From an uncultured Pirellulaceae bacterium (GTDB lineage: Bacteria > Planctomycetota > Planctomycetia > Pirellulales > Pirellulaceae), in assembly GCA_905480235.1 (NCBI GenBank), contig CAJQPP010000073.1, forward strand, positions 1 to 41,630: 41,630 nucleotides of DNA, given 5' to 3'. Both the position numbers and the translations under genes were made by a program. Of the stretch, positions 17,338 through 24,652 are shown one piece after another. The notes under the pieces were generated by a model. The model did no database searches. It was given only the letters and a program-made list of their open reading frames with translations, and was not told the DNA's origin. How positions within the stretch are numbered: the first letter of the stretch is position 1; every line of letters starts with the position of its first letter.

Positions 17338-19134
17338 TTAATCAGTATCCTTCGCAAGAGGAAGAGCCACATTGAAATAACCAATCATCATCTCTTCCCA
17401 AGTTTGATCACCCCAAGTGACGGTTTGACTAGGGTCGGGGTTGGCAAAATTTTCCTCCGAGTTATCGAATCTGGCGACGCAGTGGATGCGCGTACCCTTT
17501 GGCATGGGTTTTCGCTTCGTCAGCAGATAAGCGTTTTGCCAGTTGAAATCGTAGGTCGGCACATCCAAAAGAACCTCTTGATCCGCATCTGGATAATGGG
17601 CCGTGTAGCGAAACGCCTTGCCCCTTAAATGCATATGAGGGAAGAGCGAAAGTAATTCGGCATCTTGCTTGAACTTGAAGTTTGCCGTGACGCGATGATT
17701 GGAAGCGTTGGGCGGAATGCGGAAATCCGTATCCGCGGCTTTCTCGGTGTATACCCGATGCGTGACGTCTGAGGCATCGATAAATTTCAATCCTAGCGAA
17801 CTGATATCGGTGGTTGCGGTCCCATTCGGTGTGTAATGCATCTGGAATATCAATCGAGAACCTGCCGGAACCAATTTGGCGTAGCCAGCAGGCAGTTGCA
17901 TCGGAGGAGACCCGGGTGCGCTGGCGGCAATCCAATCCGATTGCACGTCAGATTGCCGAATCCTTCTTCCTCGCCTGCGACGAAACTGTCCTTCACCGGC
18001 AATACCGACAATGATGTGATGGATGACCGCTGGATTGCCGGGTCGGCATTCGGCCGCACAAACCCATTTGTCTTCTTTGAAGCCGGGGTCGACCACAAAA
18101 TATTCGTAATCCACGGTTCCGCTGGCCGGAACTCGATAGGGTTTGGTATCCATGGGAACCACCAGATCAGGTTCCTCCATTTGCCAACCTTTGGCATACA
18201 CAACGGGCTCCGGTAAATTAGCTTCGTTGCCCTTGGGTGCCCCTGCGTCAACCCATTGATTGATCAAGCGAATTTCGTCTTCGCTCAACCGGCAGTCGTT
18301 GCTGAACGAACCATGTTCTGGGTCGGCATGCCACGGTGGCATGCGTCCTTCATTAACGACCTCCTGAATCATGCCGGCCCAACCTGCGACTTCGTCGTAG
18401 TCCTTTAATGAAAAGGGACCAACTTCACCCGGTCGGTGGCAACTGGTGCAATTCTTCTGCAGAATCCGGCTGATCTGGTTACTGAAAGTAACGGCGTTTT
18501 GTGGGGACGCGTTGTTAACGGGCAGCAATCGACCGATGATGCAACCATCAGGCTCGACGTAGGGGGTATCGATCTTTTGTTTGGCAATCGCCTGTTGGAT
18601 GGCGTTTGTCAAAAACTCTTGCACAGGTTTATCGCGTTGTCGGCCATAGGTGAATTGGTCGTCGATCCGGCCTTGGTAAATGATGTTCTGTTCCGCGTCC
18701 AAAAGGAACGCTTCCGGTGTTCGTTGCGCGCCAAATTCGTCAGCTAATTCGTTGCCAACATCTTTAAGGATCGGAATTTCGAGTTCAAAATTTCGGGCAA
18801 AGTATTTCAATTCCTCGAGCGAGTCGTGTTGATTCGAATTGACGGCCAAAAAACGCACGCCCTGGTCAGCGAATTTGTTTTGTAAATCATTAAGCCGTGG
18901 CACATATTGTTTTACCAGTGGGCACTCCCAGCCCATAAAAATAACAACCGTGAAATCGGCATCGTCTGCGAAAACGGTTTGCGGAGTGCCATTCACATCT
19001 TTGATTTCGGTGTTCTTGATCGATCGACCAACGGAATGTTGGTTAGCAGTATCGGATTGCTGTCCCAGCAGGAAGCCCGCGGGAACACAAAACATTATGA
19101 AAAGTAGCGAATGCAATGGAGTGCGTCTCAACAT
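17338..19134 (-). CDS. Exported redoxin / c-type cytochrome / copper monooxygenase-like fusion
   Basis: This 598-residue protein has a signal peptide (LLFIMFCVPAGFLLG). Residues about 35-185 form a thioredoxin-fold redoxin domain (VVIFMGWECPLVKQY), with only one Cys (Cys71) where CxxC would be expected. Residues about 210-310 hold a heme-binding CTSCH (229-233) and PPWHADPEHG, which resembles planctomycete cytochrome domains. From about 320 the protein matches the type II copper, ascorbate-dependent monooxygenase layout: IHH (372-373), QMHYT (His433), FPHMHLRG (His500, His502) and a late Met-rich EEMMIGYF. These are plausible CuH and CuM ligands. The likely location is the periplasm. The substrate is unknown. 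The heme domain could deliver electrons to copper (inference). Confidence 0.88.
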   Translation of the reverse strand: MLRRTPLHSLLFIMFCVPAGFLLGQQSDTANQHSVGRSIKNTEIKDVNGTPQTVFADDADFTVVIFMGWECPLVKQYVPRLNDLQNKFADQGVRFLAVNSNQHDSLEELKYFARNFELEIPILKDVGNELADEFGAQRTPEAFLLDAEQNIIYQGRIDDQFTYGRQRDKPVQEFLTNAIQQAIAKQKIDTPYVEPDGCIIGRLLPVNNASPQNAVTFSNQISRILQKNCTSCHRPGEVGPFSLKDYDEVAGWAGMIQEVVNEGRMPPWHADPEHGSFSNDCRLSEDEIRLINQWVDAGAPKGNEANLPEPVVYAKGWQMEEPDLVVPMDTKPYRVPASGTVDYEYFVVDPGFKEDKWVCAAECRPGNPAVIHHIIVGIAGEGQFRRRRGRRIRQSDVQSDWIAASAPGSPPMQLPAGYAKLVPAGSRLIFQMHYTPNGTATTDISSLGLKFIDASDVTHRVYTEKAADTDFRIPPNASNHRVTANFKFKQDAELLSLFPHMHLRGKAFRYTAHYPDADQEVLLDVPTYDFNWQNAYLLTKRKPMPKGTRIHCVARFDNSEENFANPDPSQTVTWGDQTWEEMMIGYFNVALPLAKDTD

Positions 19135-19656: not shown

Positions 19657-21063
19657 TCATTGGGACTTGAACCCGGGATTCTGCAGCGTTGGCACCGGTG
19701 CGTTGACATCCGCCCGCCATGCTTTCAGTTGATCAGCTAGGCGTTGGGTGATTTCCGGATAATTTTGCGAAACATCTTGCGTCTCACCCAGATCATTTGC
19801 CAGATCAAACAACTGCACCTGCTGATCTTCAAAGGTCTCGACCAGTTTCCAATTTCCCTCCCGAATGATACTGAAGGGGCGTGCTCGAAAAAACGGATCC
19901 GGTGCCCCAGGGTAATTCTTGCCTTCTAAATACGCCGGGAAATGCCAGTACAGGGCACGATCTAATGACGCCACCTGACCGGTCATGAGCGGCAAAATAT
20001 CCACCCCATCCAAGGGTTGATTTTTGGGCGCGTCGGCATCGAGGAGTTCGCGAAACGTCTCAAAAAAATCGACGCCATGAATTGGCACATCGCATGTGGA
20101 GTTTGCCGCAATGTGTCCGGGCCAGCTGATCGCCAAGGGGACACGTATGCCGCCTTCGTACATCATGCCTTTGCCACCACGCAGTGGAGCGCTGTCGGTA
20201 ATTTTGCCGTGCCCGCCATTGTCGGAATAAAAAATCACCATCGTGTCGTCGGTTAATGATAATTCTGAGAGGGTTTGCACGATCCGACCTACCGATTCAT
20301 CGACGCTTTCGATCATGGCGGCATATTTGGCGTTGATACCTAAACGCTTGGCATTGCGTTGATATTTTTTGGTGATGGCTGGCTTCGCCTGGACTGGCGT
20401 GTGCACAGCGTAATGAGACAGAAACAGGAAGAAAGCGTCGTCTTTATTTTGCTTAACAAACTGGATGGCTTCGTCGGTCAGGCGGTCGGTTAAATACTCG
20501 GGTCCTTGGGGATCTGGAAGTTGAGGGTTTTTATAAGGTGCATGATGCCCGCCTTTGGGGGTGCCTGTTTTGTTGCCACCGATGTTGATATCGAATCCCT
20601 GTTCACAAGGGCCGTCCTTTCCAGGTGAACCCAAGTGCCATTTTCCCATATAGGCAGTTTGATAATCGGCCGACTGAAATAACTCACCCAACGTGGTTAC
20701 GGATGCGGGTAACGTGGTACGATTCTTTTCCGGTACCAAACGTCGCAGTTCAGATTTCCCGCGTTGCGAACTCCCGACCGTATAGATGCCATGCCGTGGT
20801 GAATATTGACCACTCATCAAGCAGGCTCGTGAGGGTGCGCAATTGGGAGCTGCCGCGTAGGCATTGGTGAAAGTCATGCCGCTGGCGGCGAGTTGGTCAA
20901 TTTTCGGTGTTTGATAATGGGGAGCTCCCATAAAACCCACGTCGCTGTAACCAAGATCGTCAATGTAAATTAGAACGACGTTAGGAGTGTCGGCGTGGGC
21001 CGAAGCGAAGGCCAGGCATAAGTAAAAGCCGGCAAACCATGCCATACCAATAGCGCGCATCAT
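19657..21063 (-). CDS. Exported arylsulfatase-type sulfatase
   Basis: This 468-residue protein starts with a signal peptide (MMRAIGMAWFAGFYLCLAFASAHA), which is why the start at 21063 is preferred over an upstream one at 21114. It is an S1-type sulfatase: metal-binding DD at 35-36 (LIYIDDLGYSDVG), the formylglycine motif C-A-P-S-R at 75-79 (NCAPSRACLMSGQ), GKWHLG, FLFLSHYAVHTP, and SDNGGHG. The Cys needs conversion by a formylglycine-generating enzyme, which is not in the window. Such enzymes are very numerous in marine planctomycetes and act on sulfated polysaccharides; the precise substrate is unknown. Confidence 0.95.
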   Translation of the reverse strand: MMRAIGMAWFAGFYLCLAFASAHADTPNVVLIYIDDLGYSDVGFMGAPHYQTPKIDQLAASGMTFTNAYAAAPNCAPSRACLMSGQYSPRHGIYTVGSSQRGKSELRRLVPEKNRTTLPASVTTLGELFQSADYQTAYMGKWHLGSPGKDGPCEQGFDINIGGNKTGTPKGGHHAPYKNPQLPDPQGPEYLTDRLTDEAIQFVKQNKDDAFFLFLSHYAVHTPVQAKPAITKKYQRNAKRLGINAKYAAMIESVDESVGRIVQTLSELSLTDDTMVIFYSDNGGHGKITDSAPLRGGKGMMYEGGIRVPLAISWPGHIAANSTCDVPIHGVDFFETFRELLDADAPKNQPLDGVDILPLMTGQVASLDRALYWHFPAYLEGKNYPGAPDPFFRARPFSIIREGNWKLVETFEDQQVQLFDLANDLGETQDVSQNYPEITQRLADQLKAWRADVNAPVPTLQNPGFKSQ

Positions 21064-21518
21064 TAAATATCTTTCGGCAAAAGGGCAGGGGGGTGGTGAT
21101 GCCATCCAAGGCACAACGATTATCGTGCCATGCCCATTTGATTTTCGCTACCTGCCGCAGGTTATCGGTGCGCATGAATTGGCAAAAAACTCCGGATCTG
21201 GAGCCGGGTAACGGCGGTCTTGTGAGTGTCCAGCTCTGTGGGTATGAGGAAATTCGCCTGACGATTCGGTCGACAAATTCGGGGGAGGCGAATTCCCTGC
21301 TTAGAGGGTGAGCATTATGGAGTCGGTCGGACTGCGCAATTTTTCGGTTGGTTCGGGTTGCGGTGCCGCACGGGTTGGCTCCAAATCGGGCTAGTCAGCG
21401 GGTCGGACACCATCATGGGGGACCCCCGTAGGGCCAGAAGGGGCCGCGAGAAAAAGGGGGAATCGCAGCAGGTGAAGCATGGCTTTCTAGCTTCGTGGAT
21501 TTTGGCATTACCATGGCG

Positions 21519-21706: not shown

Positions 21707-22030
21707 ATGGCTCTTGAATTGAATGAAGATACCTTTGATGGGGAAGTGCTCGAGTCGAGCACGCCGGTACTGGTGGACTTTTGGGCGCCTACGTGAGGTC
21801 CCTGCCGAAAACTGGGTCCAGTTATCGATGAACTTTCTAACGTCAACGAAGGCAAAGCCAAAGTCGCCAAAGTCGATGTTAATCAGAATATGCCCTTGGC
21901 AGCCAAGTACGGTGTTTCCATGTTGCCAACCATTCTTGTTTTCAAGAATGGAGAGGTTGTAGAAACACAGGTCGGATTAGTTCCCGGCCCGAAACTGCAA
22001 GAGATGATCGACGCTCATGTGAGTGCTTAG
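21707..22030 (+). CDS. trxA: Thioredoxin with in-frame TGA at the active site (probable selenoprotein)
   Basis: Read through one TGA, this is a complete 107-residue thioredoxin: MALELNEDTFDGEVL, VLVDFWAPT, then TGA, GPCRKLGPVIDELS, KVAKVDVNQN, the cis-proline segment VSMLPTILVFKNGEVV, and VGLVPGPKLQEMIDAHVSA. TGA 21794-21796 is codon 30 and falls exactly on the first cysteine of W-C-G-P-C; Cys33 remains. No other stop or frameshift interrupts the gene. The hairpin at 21806-21827 has the form and spacing of a bacterial SECIS. Selenocysteine would make the nucleophile more reactive in disulfide reduction in the cytoplasm. The alternative is a pseudogene with a TGC/TGT-to-TGA change, but the position and hairpin argue against it. 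The Sec machinery (selA, selB, selC, selD) must lie outside this window. Confidence 0.85.
21806..21827 (+). promoter_or_regulatory. Predicted bacterial SECIS element
   Basis: The stem CGA-a-AACTG (21806-21814) pairs with CAGTT-a-TCG (21819-21827), eight pairs with one A-A mismatch, closing a GGTC tetraloop (21815-21818). The loop GGT is nucleotides 22-24 counted from the T of the TGA. The E. coli fdhF SECIS, as I know it, has a GGUC loop at the same distance. SelB binds this loop to deliver Sec-tRNA. Confidence 0.75.
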
Positions 22031-22081: not shown

Positions 22082-22123
22082 CAGCCGTAATCTCCGAATC
22101 GGGGTTTACGGCTGTTTTCTTTT
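22082..22123 (+). terminator. Rho-independent terminator after the thioredoxin gene
   Basis: A perfect 9-bp stem (CAGCCGTAA 22082-22090 with TTACGGCTG 22106-22114) is followed by TTTTCTTTTT. It lies 52 bases after the stop, so the thioredoxin is probably a single-gene unit. Confidence 0.9.
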
Positions 22124-22225
22124 TACAGCAAAATAGATCTCATCGGTTCAAGAACGCGTGCGCTGGAGACCGAGCCTGCGTTGGGTGTTGGATTTAGCGG
22201 CAAGGAAATATGGGATGTTGGAAAG

Positions 22226-22849
22226 ATGAAATTATTAGCCAAACAATGGGTGTGGATGGGGCTTTGGGGAATACTAATGGCAGGTGCATTGCAGGCGGCA
22301 CCACTCGTGGCTCAAAATAACCTGAAAGAAGTTGCGGTGATCACCACCGACCATGGAGAAATGCTCATCGAGATGTGGCCTGAGGTGGCGCCAAAAACGG
22401 TAGCCAATTTTAAGAAATTGGCGAAGGCCGGCTTTTACGACGGCCAATGTTTCCATCGCATTATTGATGGCTTCATGATTCAGGGAGGCGATCCTCTAAC
22501 AAAAAACGAAAAGGAAAAAGCGAATTACGGGACGGGAGGACCCGGCTATCACATCGCTGCCGAATTCAATAACCGAAAACACGTTCGCGGCGTGATTTCC
22601 ATGGCACGTGGCAGTGATCCCAATTCGGCCGGCTCGCAATTTTTTATCTGTCTCGGTAATACTCCTCAACTGGATGGCAAGTATACGGCCTTCGGGAATT
22701 TGGTTTTGGGAGATGGTGTGCTGGAAAAATTGGGCAAGGAAAAGGTCAGTTTTAACGCTCGAGGAAATGAAAAAAGCGTGCCCTTAAGTCGCGTCAATAT
22801 TGAGTCGATTCGCTTTCAGGAACGCCCCATCTCGACGAATGGCAAATAG
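22226..22849 (+). CDS. Exported cyclophilin-type peptidyl-prolyl isomerase
   Basis: This 207-residue protein begins with a signal peptide (MKLLAKQWVWMGLWGILMAGALQA), which sets the start at 22226; the longer frame from 22181 would bury the signal. The cyclophilin domain shows VAPKTVANFKKLAKAGFYDG, the FHRIIDGFMIQGGD motif (about 75-88), VRGVISMARGSDPNSAGSQFFI and LDGKYTAFGNLVLG. These include the catalytic Arg in FHR and the Gln and Phe of GSQFFI. It should catalyse cis-trans proline isomerisation of exported proteins in the periplasm. It is convergent with the PTS enzyme I gene. Confidence 0.93.
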   Translation: MKLLAKQWVWMGLWGILMAGALQAAPLVAQNNLKEVAVITTDHGEMLIEMWPEVAPKTVANFKKLAKAGFYDGQCFHRIIDGFMIQGGDPLTKNEKEKANYGTGGPGYHIAAEFNNRKHVRGVISMARGSDPNSAGSQFFICLGNTPQLDGKYTAFGNLVLGDGVLEKLGKEKVSFNARGNEKSVPLSRVNIESIRFQERPISTNGK

Positions 22850-22885: not shown

Positions 22886-24652
22886 TTAAGTCGAGGTGTC
22901 GAGAATGGCCAGGTCGGGGGCGATTTCTTGAACCCTATCGGTCATGAATCGCCTTACTTGGCCGGTCGTTTTGAACTTGGCCACTTTGCGGAAGATGGCT
23001 TCCGTTTCGGCAATGGTGACGCGGCTGGCCAATTGTTTGATAGAAGGTACAAAGGCAGGGCTCATACTGAAATTTCGCAGACCCATCCCTAACAACAATA
23101 AAAATGATTTGGGCTGTCCTGCCATTTCTCCGCAGACGGTCACGGGTTTACCGGCGTCATTGCAGGCCGTGATGACCGAATGCAAAACATGTACGACGGC
23201 AGGCGACAGAGGTTGGCAGAGATGACTGACCTTGGGGTTATCGCGGTCGGCAGCCATCAGGTATTGAACCAGGTCATTCGAGCCGATGGACACAAAATCG
23301 ACGATGTCCAGCATGCTGCGAATGGTGACCGCGGCGGCGGGAACTTCCAACATCATGCCCATCGGTACGCGGGTGGTTGGCAAGCCCTGTTCTTCCAGCG
23401 ATTTGTAAGCGCGTCGCACCATGCCTCGTAGACGTCTTATTTCCTCGACGGTGGTTACCATGGGAAACATCATTCGCACCTGACTGTCAGGCGAATCAGA
23501 CGCAGCTCGAATGATGGCGCGGATTTGGGTGTTGAAAAATTCAGGATGTTCAAACGACAGACGAATACTACGCCATCCCATAAACGGGTTGGCTTCCTGG
23601 TGATGATGGCCCAGATAAGGAACGGTTTTATCACCACCGATATCTAGCGTACGGATGGTGATATTTTGATCCGGGCTGGACTTGATGATGGATTTATAGG
23701 TTTCGTACTGCTCGTGTTCATCGGGTACATCGGGGTGGGTCAAATAGAGGTATTCGGTCCGATAGAGTCCGACCCCGGCAGCGCCCATGGCCACGGATGC
23801 TACGGCATCTGGCTGGCCGTTAATATTGGCGTGGAGATACAATAACTGGCCATCCGAGGTGACTGCGGGTTGATCGTGATTTTCGGCGAGTTGATCTTTG
23901 AGATCAAAGAATTCCCGTTCCAATTTTCGGAAAGCGGACAGGGCTTCGGCATCAGGATTGATGACCACATGACCGGCACGACCATCAACAATGATGGTGT
24001 CGCCTGTTTTTACCAAACGCATTAAGCGGGAGACGCCGCAGATGGCGGGGATACCTCGAGATCTCGCAATGATGGCGGCATGGCTGGTCTGGCTACCCGC
24101 TTGGGTAGCGATCCCTTGCACCTCGATATCGCCCAGTGCAACAACCTGACTGGGCAGCAATTCATCGGCGATAACGATTAATGGTCCCTTGAGTACCTCT
24201 TGCGATTTCTCCGGACGCAGCACATCGGACATGTGCCCGCTGAGACGGATGACGACATCCCGAACGTCGTTTAATCGCTCGCGCAGATAGGCGTCGTTGG
24301 TACGCGAGAATAATTCGGTGTATTCACCCAATAGCCGATGCAGGGCGGCGGCTGCGGTCAGTCGCTCGTCCACAATCCAAGTGCGTATTTTTTGAGTGAA
24401 TGCCGCGTCTCGAAGAATGGACCGATGCACGGCAAAAATAGAGGCCTCTTCATGGCCCACTTGGGCATCGACCTTGCGCTCCAGTGCGCGCAGATCGGCT
24501 GCCGAGCGATCACGAGCTGTCTCGTATCGCGCCAGTTCTGCCGTTACTTCTGAGTCTTCCAGGAGCTTGGTGTCGGGATTCACGAAGATTTCGTGAATCA
24601 CGTACGCGGTACCTATGGCCACTCCTGGCGAGACAGCAATACCTTTTCGCAT
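22886..24652 (-). CDS. ptsI: Phosphoenolpyruvate-protein phosphotransferase (enzyme I)
   Basis: This 588-residue cytoplasmic enzyme transfers phosphate from PEP to HPr. The N-terminal half carries the HPr-binding helical domain and the phosphorylated His191 in GSQTSHAAIIARSRGIPAICG. The C-terminal PEP-binding barrel has GLYRTEYL, TIRTLDIGGDK, NPFMGWRSIR, MFPMVTTVEE, GMMLEVPAA, IGSNDLVQYLMAADR and the catalytic Cys in CGEMAGQP. Length and motif order are standard. No ptsH or sugar-specific EII component is nearby; in bacteria with few sugar permeases EI often feeds a regulatory phosphorelay, which is an inference here. Confidence 0.95.
   Translation of the reverse strand: MRKGIAVSPGVAIGTAYVIHEIFVNPDTKLLEDSEVTAELARYETARDRSAADLRALERKVDAQVGHEEASIFAVHRSILRDAAFTQKIRTWIVDERLTAAAALHRLLGEYTELFSRTNDAYLRERLNDVRDVVIRLSGHMSDVLRPEKSQEVLKGPLIVIADELLPSQVVALGDIEVQGIATQAGSQTSHAAIIARSRGIPAICGVSRLMRLVKTGDTIIVDGRAGHVVINPDAEALSAFRKLEREFFDLKDQLAENHDQPAVTSDGQLLYLHANINGQPDAVASVAMGAAGVGLYRTEYLYLTHPDVPDEHEQYETYKSIIKSSPDQNITIRTLDIGGDKTVPYLGHHHQEANPFMGWRSIRLSFEHPEFFNTQIRAIIRAASDSPDSQVRMMFPMVTTVEEIRRLRGMVRRAYKSLEEQGLPTTRVPMGMMLEVPAAAVTIRSMLDIVDFVSIGSNDLVQYLMAADRDNPKVSHLCQPLSPAVVHVLHSVITACNDAGKPVTVCGEMAGQPKSFLLLLGMGLRNFSMSPAFVPSIKQLASRVTIAETEAIFRKVAKFKTTGQVRRFMTDRVQEIAPDLAILDTST

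What the first reader, a model, noticed from the sequence alone, without database searches (positions are those of the whole stretch)
21794..21796. TGA replaces the first catalytic Cys of an otherwise intact thioredoxin
The gene 21707-22030 translates as one full-length thioredoxin with a single in-frame TGA at codon 30. The residues around it are WAPT-(TGA)-GPC, so the stop lies exactly on the nucleophilic Cys of CGPC. Downstream, 77 codons stay open and keep the cis-Pro segment. A decayed gene would not be expected to lose one codon only, and at that codon. Selenocysteine at this place is chemically sensible and would make a UGPC thioredoxin. Sec-containing thioredoxins and thioredoxin-like proteins are known from bacterial selenoproteome surveys, but gene callers would miss this copy.
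Basis: partly seen in the sequence, partly recalled or inferred. Interest (0 to 1): 0.93.

Follow-up and report, generated by a model that had tools for sequence, protein, structure and literature searches.

The report
Selenocysteine thioredoxin of a planctomycete
This planctomycete bacterium carries a complete thioredoxin gene whose catalytic cysteine codon is a TGA "stop" codon; the same genome holds the genes for inserting selenocysteine and a hairpin-forming stretch follows the TGA, so the stop is very likely read as selenocysteine, which would give a selenium-based form of a basic redox protein.

Summary
In detail: window 21707-22030 encodes a 107-aa thioredoxin (PF00085, TIGR01068) with one in-frame TGA, on the first Cys of CGPC (WAPT-TGA-GPC). 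The same genome has full-length selA, selB and selD and a tRNA-Sec (anticodon UCA); its selD also holds an in-frame TGA. A congener (G002) keeps the TGA and the next 98 nt unchanged (gene dN 0.012, dS 0.27). A hairpin with a GGUC loop starts 18 nt after the TGA, inside the published 16-37 nt range; 0.2% of 4000 synonymous recodings fold as stably, though pair counts alone are less striking (3-7%). The closest full-length database homologue (83% identical) has Cys here. Six more genomes of the family carry TGA at this codon. Sec-thioredoxin (UxxC) is a known, experimentally verified family, so this is a new member of a known kind. Unusual: in this group, which lacks the Trp before the nucleophile, Sec and Cys are scattered so that at least six exchanges are needed on my tree (four on well-supported branches), whereas a 2026 review calls Sec-to-Cys change rare outside FdhA and SelD. 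No protein evidence exists.

The parts
21707..22030 (+). Thioredoxin gene, 107 codons with one in-frame TGA, predicted Sec-thioredoxin (WAPT-U-GPC)
   Evidence: conserved in G002
21794..21796 (+). TGA at codon 30, on the N-terminal (nucleophilic) Cys of the CGPC site; predicted Sec codon
   Evidence: alignment to solved thioredoxins; Cys in P0001 (83% identical)
21803..21805 (+). Second active-site Cys (codon 33) of U/CGPC
21806..21827 (+). Predicted bacterial SECIS hairpin (nt 13-34 counting U of UGA as 1): 5 contiguous pairs, one A.A mismatch, 3 more pairs, loop GGUC at nt 22-25
   Evidence: same loop with a changed but still paired stem in G187 and G164
22082..22124 (+). Probable intrinsic terminator downstream of the gene: 14-pair hairpin (22082-22114) followed by TTTTCTTTTT; also present in G002
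   Evidence: fold (-21.8 kcal/mol, z -5.6, 0 of 200 shuffles as good); G002 sequence; not listed by the simple scan
22181..22849 (+). Cyclophilin-type peptidyl-prolyl isomerase, next gene; conserved neighbour in G002, and next to ptsI in G001
19657..21114 (-). Sulfatase, divergent neighbour; a 64% identical sulfatase lies divergent from the Cys thioredoxin of congener G001
22886..24652 (-). PEP-utilising enzyme (PtsI-like), downstream neighbour; in six genomes of genus g94 it lies 0.2-1.6 kb from a Cys thioredoxin, in nine other ptsI loci examined no thioredoxin was found within the 1.5 kb held

Best explanation
The gene at 21707-22030 is a full-length thioredoxin gene with a single in-frame TGA at the codon of its nucleophilic cysteine, and it is predicted to make a selenocysteine thioredoxin with a UGPC active site. 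Likely steps: SelB carrying Sec-tRNA(UCA) would bind the GGUC-loop hairpin that starts 18 nt after the UGA and insert Sec at codon 30 in place of termination (inferred). The selenol would attack substrate disulfides, the selenenylsulfide would be resolved by Cys33, and a TrxB-type reductase, whose gene is present in the genome, would recycle the protein (inferred from known thioredoxin chemistry). Shown by the calls: the TGA and its place, its presence in eight genomes, Cys in close homologues, the complete set of Sec genes, the hairpin-forming stretch, and purifying selection. Not shown: Sec in the protein, and its activity.
For: Position and intact frame. Sec genes in the same genome: selA 576 bits, selB 382 bits, selD 359 bits with its own in-frame TGA, tRNA-Sec 74 bits with anticodon tca. 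Same TGA in G002 with the next 98 nt identical, and dN 0.012 / dS 0.272 over the gene without the TGA codon (14 synonymous and 2 non-synonymous codons). TGA at the same codon in six more genomes, five of six with selA over the cut-off. Hairpin nt 13-34: 0.2% of 4000 synonymous recodings as stable; none of the 15 Cys rows tested reaches its energy or its 5 contiguous pairs; identical GGUC loop at the same distance in G187 and G164 with an A-U to G-C pair change. selD of G000, G001 and G002 also has a downstream hairpin with GGU in or at the loop. Homologues with Cys at this codon: P0001 83% identical, P0121 70%. TGA is an ordinary stop of 3 of 9 Pfam-matched window genes. TrxB-type reductase.
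Against: No protein, mass-spectrometric or 75Se evidence. Folding of the four 50-91 nt stretches tried around the UGA is no better than shuffles (z 0.5 to 0.8). The hairpin test was designed after the hairpin was seen, and by pair counts it is weaker: 7.3% of 20000 recodings have as many contiguous pairs and 3.0% as many pairs in all. Of the other TGA copies, the three UPPC genes G184, G186 and G188 have weak hairpins (about 25% of recodings as stable for the two tested) and G180 has none in that register. Rfam finds no RNA family in the window at the gathering threshold. selA was not over the cut-off in G188 (89% complete) and selB not in G001 (84% complete).
Confidence: 0.95

Rival explanations
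1. Pseudogene or assembly error: a plain nonsense change at codon 30 of a dying or mis-sequenced gene.
For: The window is from a draft genome in 167 contigs, 86.67% complete; a single-base change could make TGC or TGG into TGA.
Against: Same TGA in the separate genome G002 and in six more genomes; dN/dS about 0.05 between G000 and G002; no second stop; Sec machinery present.
Confidence: 0.02
2. UGA is read as Trp (genetic code 4) or by a near-cognate suppressor, so that residue 30 is Trp and the protein is a WGPC variant.
For: Five database homologues show W at this position (P0004, P0005, P0161, P0165, P0175).
Against: Those W residues are most simply gene-caller output under code 4 (inferred; their DNA was not seen). 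3 of 9 Pfam-matched genes of the window end in TGA, the sulfatase one with the next stop 88 codons on. A Trp here would remove the nucleophile. Full Sec machinery is present.
Confidence: 0.015
3. Regulated termination: the UGA mainly stops translation, and a short 29-residue peptide or an internally started 72-residue fragment is the product, Sec read-through being minor.
For: A database gene call (P0003) starts downstream of the TGA; Sec insertion in bacteria competes with termination (recalled).
Against: The 29 codons before the TGA are conserved as thioredoxin sequence in P0001 and other Cys homologues; a fragment without the nucleophile would not work as a thioredoxin.
Confidence: 0.015

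Closest known systems
Sec-containing thioredoxin (Trx, UxxC), for example the verified WP_010956703.1 listed in PMC13188914 (table, passages seen); seven genes in PMC1794560 (passages) and eleven in the Sargasso Sea set PMC1088965 (passages)
   Same: Thioredoxin family PF00085, Sec predicted at the N-terminal position of CxxC, bacterial Sec genes, hairpin right after UGA.
   Different: Different lineage (Pirellulaceae-type planctomycetes); Thr replaces the Trp before the nucleophile; closest relatives are Cys forms of the same subgroup. I did not fetch the verified protein or align with it.
Canonical Cys thioredoxin (WCGPC) of the same family of planctomycetes
   Same: Up to 61% identity, same length, same cis-Pro region; in congener G001 the Cys gene has a divergent sulfatase neighbour as in the window.
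   Different: Cys at codon 30 and Trp before it. In the family search the only matches with TGA at this codon are the eight without that Trp; all 180 database proteins with Trp there have Cys, though gene callers would tend to drop TGA copies.
UGPC TlpA/Redoxin-like proteins of Planctomycetota
   Same: W-A-x-x-TGA-G-P-C active site in a thioredoxin fold.
   Different: Longer proteins; five of the ten given to Pfam also match Redoxin and AhpC-TSA models; not the 107-aa type.

Membership tests
Sec-containing thioredoxin (UxxC) | Member of the thioredoxin family | tested here: met
   PF00085 97.6 bits vs 23.5; TIGR01068 107.7 vs 96.8; best solved chain 4ba7_A E 6.2e-35
Sec-containing thioredoxin (UxxC) | In-frame UGA at the first Cys of CxxC, frame open on both sides | tested here: met
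Sec-containing thioredoxin (UxxC) | SECIS-like hairpin with apical loop 16-37 nt after UGA and a G in the loop (criteria from PMC10778597 and PMC4607533, passages) | tested here: met
   loop GGUC 18 nt after UGA, 5 contiguous pairs plus 3; 0.2% of 4000 recodings as stable, 7.3% and 3.0% by pair counts. Whole-region folding not significant. SelB binding not testable here
Sec-containing thioredoxin (UxxC) | Genome encodes SelA, SelB, SelD and tRNA-Sec | tested here: met
Sec-containing thioredoxin (UxxC) | Cys homologues at the UGA position | tested here: met
   P0001, P0002, P0121-P0123, P0008; of the 231 listed proteins 225 have C, 5 have W, 1 (P0003) is the truncated call
Sec-containing thioredoxin (UxxC) | Sec shown in the protein, and thioredoxin activity | not testable with these tools
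   needs 75Se labelling or mass spectrometry
Pseudogene | Relaxed selection or further disabling changes | tested here: not met
   dN 0.012, dS 0.272; one internal stop only
Genetic code 4 (UGA = Trp) | TGA not used as a stop | tested here: not met
   3 of 9 Pfam-matched window genes end in TGA

The most novel reading that the evidence does not exclude
Pirellulaceae-type planctomycetes hold a thioredoxin lineage in which the catalytic chalcogen itself is evolutionarily switchable: after losing the Trp before the nucleophile, the gene has flipped between Cys and Sec at least six times, in UGPC and UPPC forms, and in the window's lineage the Sec form sits at the trxA locus with no close Cys TrxA left, making the cell's main thioredoxin selenium-dependent.
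Probability: 0.35. Interest if true: 0.72.

Novelty: new member of a known kind. Interest (0 to 1): 0.5.

Why it matters
It corrects a gene that a database call truncates and adds a Sec form of a core redox protein in planctomycetes. The wider value is comparative: pairs such as G188 (TGA) and P0128 (Cys), 91% identical, or the window gene and P0001, 83% identical, differ at the catalytic atom and in little else. They would let one measure directly what selenium buys a thioredoxin, and why bacteria gain and drop it. A 2026 review states that Sec-to-Cys change is rare and mainly known for FdhA and SelD (PMC13188914, passage); this group could be a counter-example if the direction of the switches can be resolved, which I could not do.

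Tried and rejected
Whole-region RNA folding around the UGA gave nothing better than shuffles; only the local hairpin test with synonymous recoding was informative. Rfam scan of the window at the gathering threshold: no hit; no tRNA in the window.

The first codon comparison with G002 was wrong because the minus-strand loci were not turned; it was redone and one search is not used. I first thought of an in-place Cys-to-Sec change of the canonical trxA, because the sulfatase, cyclophilin and ptsI neighbours resemble those of G001 and because ptsI lies 0.2-1.6 kb from a Cys thioredoxin in six genomes of genus g94. Against that, of the 12 ptsI loci only those of G000 and G002 have a thioredoxin within the 1.5 kb held (the G001 contig ends near there and G186 is cut). 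The trees do not favour it either: the window gene groups with a Trp-less subgroup (82/94, 77/82, the latter marked weak), and with its own WxPT relatives (95/90), where the unrooted tree leaves the place of the canonical rows open. Holding it with G001 gives p-AU 0.034, with G001, G029 and G172 0.105. Gene conversion, replacement, or an old subgroup copy at that locus are all open. One single clade for the 8 Sec rows alone is rejected (p-AU 0.003). These groups were named after the tree was seen. For one search I chose 62 rows; for I dropped 13 of them (long branches, other phyla, distant paralogues); one search used 50 chosen rows of the subgroup and of canonical Cys genes.

G031 (TGA reported) and G215 (TAG reported) were read: in both the active site has Cys and the stop lies at the C-terminal end; they are not counted. 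The simple terminator scan missed the hairpin that folds. Paper searches on this; one search was for SECIS geometry. PMC5094351 (biochemistry of a Sec-thioredoxin) is not held and was not read.

Full report
What was claimed and what is there. The window region 21707-22030 (+) translates as one thioredoxin with a single internal TGA at 21794-21796, codon 30, in the context WAPT-TGA-GPC. Under TGA = Sec the 107-aa product matches Pfam Thioredoxin with 97.6 bits and the NCBIfam thioredoxin model TIGR01068 with 107.7 bits against a cut-off of 96.8. In the alignments with solved thioredoxins the TGA falls on the first Cys of CGPC.

Where it is. The window is contig C73 of a 4.83-Mb draft genome in 167 contigs, 86.67% complete. 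The nearest genome, G002, holds the gene on a 20,507-base contig; the public record JAAEPL010000053.1, MAG Planctomycetaceae bacterium isolate Cli_10, has the same length and the same gene. A family member, G106, has the same thioredoxin sequence as the database protein P0149, named for Bremerella alba, so the family is probably Pirellulaceae (placement of Bremerella recalled).

Sec machinery. In this genome one search finds full-length selA (576 bits), selB (382 bits), selD (359 bits) and tRNA-Sec (74 bits), which ARAGORN reads as tRNA-SeC with anticodon tca. Of the 79 genomes pass the selA cut-off, 60 the tRNA-Sec cut-off (the weaker of these, near 47-53 bits, are probably other tRNAs; inferred) and 42 the selB cut-off. 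selD of G000, G001 and G002 itself carries one in-frame TGA, in the context SCAG-U-AGKL. The genome therefore shows two genes with a TGA at a classical Sec position.

Conservation and selection. G002 has the same TGA. The two genes differ by 14 synonymous and 2 non-synonymous codons; dN is 0.012 and dS 0.272 without the TGA codon. One difference lies in the 87 nt before the TGA and 19 in the 231 nt after it; the first 98 nt after the TGA are identical. Codons 20 to 62 are unchanged, more than a hairpin alone would explain. The third genome of the genus, G001, has a partial thioredoxin at a contig end with Cys, WAQWCGPC.

More TGA copies. A search of 241 genomes of the family matched 106 at E <= 1e-30; weaker copies would be missed. 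Besides G000 and G002, six genomes have TGA at this codon when read: G187 and G164 (YSES-U-GPC, YSDS-U-GPC), G184, G186 and G188 (WADG-U-PPC) and G180 (WSEG-U-PPC). G186 and G188 also carry a Cys copy with WCGPC. Two other reported stops (G215 TAG, G031 TGA) are not at this codon. selA passes the cut-off in 5 of these 6 genomes; the miss is G188, 89% complete. It also passes in all 9 other genomes of that genus that I gave to the search, so selA is expected but does not discriminate here.

The hairpin. Counting the U of UGA as 1, nt 13-34 can fold as CGA-A-AACUG-[GGUC]-CAGUU-A-UCG: five contiguous pairs, one A.A mismatch, three more pairs, loop at nt 22-25. The loop starts 18 nt after the UGA; the published range is 16-37 nt (PMC10778597, passage), and a 5/6-bp hairpin with an invariant loop G is described as close to the minimal E. 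coli element (PMC4607533, passages). That the register equals that of E. coli fdhF is recalled, not tested. Among 4000 random synonymous recodings of the same peptide with codon use from eleven window ORFs, 0.2% are as stable; for G187 and G164 about 0.5%. By pair counts the window hairpin is less striking: 7.3% of 20000 recodings have as many contiguous pairs and 3.0% as many pairs in all. None of the 15 Cys rows of the same call reaches its energy (-6.1; best Cys row -4.6) or five contiguous pairs. G187 and G164 share the GGUC loop at the same distance, with one stem pair changed from A-U to G-C. Against this: G184 and G186 are weak (about 25% of recodings as stable), G188 has the same energy as these, G180 shows no such hairpin, and unrestricted folding of 50-91 nt was no better than shuffles. 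The selD genes have a hairpin with GGU in or at the loop further downstream (AGGUC in G000 and G001, AGGUU in G002), so the motif recurs in the same genomes.

Cys partners. The protein search gave 1589 proteins at E <= 1e-25, the best 120 listed. The best, P0001, is 83% identical and has WAPT-C-GPCRKLGPVID. P0003 is the window's gene as called: 72 aa, starting after the TGA. A profile search scored 8000 candidates and listed the best 120 of 3384. Over the 231 different proteins of the two lists, 225 have C at the position, 5 have W and 1 is P0003. In the 230 with the motif, the residue before the nucleophile is W in 180, all of them C; it is T, G, S or H in the other 50, of which 45 are C and 5 are W. 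The W residues are most simply TGA translated under code 4 by a metagenome gene caller; this is inferred, as their DNA was not seen. Gene callers would tend to drop TGA copies, so these counts under-represent them. The eight TGA copies read from DNA also lack that Trp. Other phyla do not follow the rule: Verrucomicrobiota Sec candidates keep WAPWUGPC.

Evolution. In a tree of 50 chosen rows the eight TGA copies need at least six changes of state against Cys (eight with the five W rows counted as TGA); well-supported branches alone force four. G188 (TGA) and P0128 (Cys) are 91% identical over 102 residues and are sisters with support 98/83. Direction cannot be read from the tree, and 107 columns for 50 rows leave 16 of 47 forks open. 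The 2026 review says that Sec-to-Cys change is rare and mainly documented for FdhA and SelD (PMC13188914, passage).

Locus. In the window the order is sulfatase (divergent), thioredoxin, cyclophilin, ptsI-like (convergent); G002 agrees. G001 has the sulfatase divergent from its Cys thioredoxin on one contig and cyclophilin next to ptsI on another. Six genomes of genus g94 have a Cys thioredoxin 0.2-1.6 kb from ptsI, but in eight complete ptsI loci of other genomes (G029, G164, G170, G180, G183, G184, G187, G188) no thioredoxin was found within the 1.5 kb held. The Sec gene of G000 and G002 thus lies where some relatives have a Cys trxA; whether by conversion, replacement or descent is open, because the trees do not put it with G001. 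No close Cys TrxA was found in G000 or G002; G000 does have a distant thioredoxin-like gene with WCGPC (C89, 39-42% identity), so the cell is not shown to depend on the Sec form. Both drafts are incomplete. A thioredoxin reductase gene is present in G000 and G002.

Known or new. Sec-thioredoxin with UxxC is listed as experimentally verified, with reference 84, in PMC13188914 (passages), and was in surveys of 2005 and 2006 (PMC1088965, PMC1794560; passages with tables). Planctomycete Sec genes and selenoproteins were described in PMC4807772 (passages; its one mention of thioredoxin is in a reference title). My searches listed no paper on a planctomycete Sec-thioredoxin, but the supplement that might list one was out of reach, and most subscription papers are not held. 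Verdict: a new member of a known kind, with an unusual Sec/Cys switching group around it.

What the check changed. The unchanged stretch after the TGA is 98 nt, not 101; the pair-count nulls, the Cys-row control, the ptsI loci without a thioredoxin and the distant WCGPC gene of G000 were added; the last of these lowered the probability of the novel case from 0.40 to 0.35.

Noticed in passing
Ten given to Pfam all match PF00085, five of them also Redoxin and AhpC-TSA. UGPC thioredoxin-fold selenoprotein candidates seem frequent in planctomycetes.
   Followed up: partly
L069, L088, L146, L161 (Verrucomicrobiota); L072, L074, L111 (Chloroflexota); L177 (Planctomycetota): Thioredoxin-like UGPC genes outside the window's group. 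In the Chloroflexota ones the frame runs 203 codons past the TGA; in the piece of L072 given to Pfam only the thioredoxin domain, residues 29-131 of 209, matched.
   Followed up: partly
L058, L059, L060: selD of all three genomes of the genus has an in-frame TGA (SCAG-U-AGKL); G001 holds a second selD-like gene without a stop (G001:C71, 258.6 bits).
   Followed up: partly
G184, G186, G188 (TGA) and G182 (Cys), loci L217, L220, L221, L226: The UPPC/CPPC thioredoxin lies next to a gene whose product looks like a glutamate synthase small subunit (name recalled from the sequence), 84-94% identical among the four.
   Followed up: no
window 17338-19134 (-): Protein with an AhpC-TSA/Redoxin domain followed by a weak cytochrome c-like stretch, upstream of the sulfatase and thioredoxin.
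   Followed up: no
window 21707-22027 against G002: Codons 20-62 are identical at the DNA level between G000 and G002 while 13 of 14 synonymous changes lie in codons 63-104; a hairpin would account for only part of this stretch.
   Followed up: no
P0005: The C-terminal tail of this database protein looks like a translated sequencing adapter (recalled pattern).
   Followed up: no
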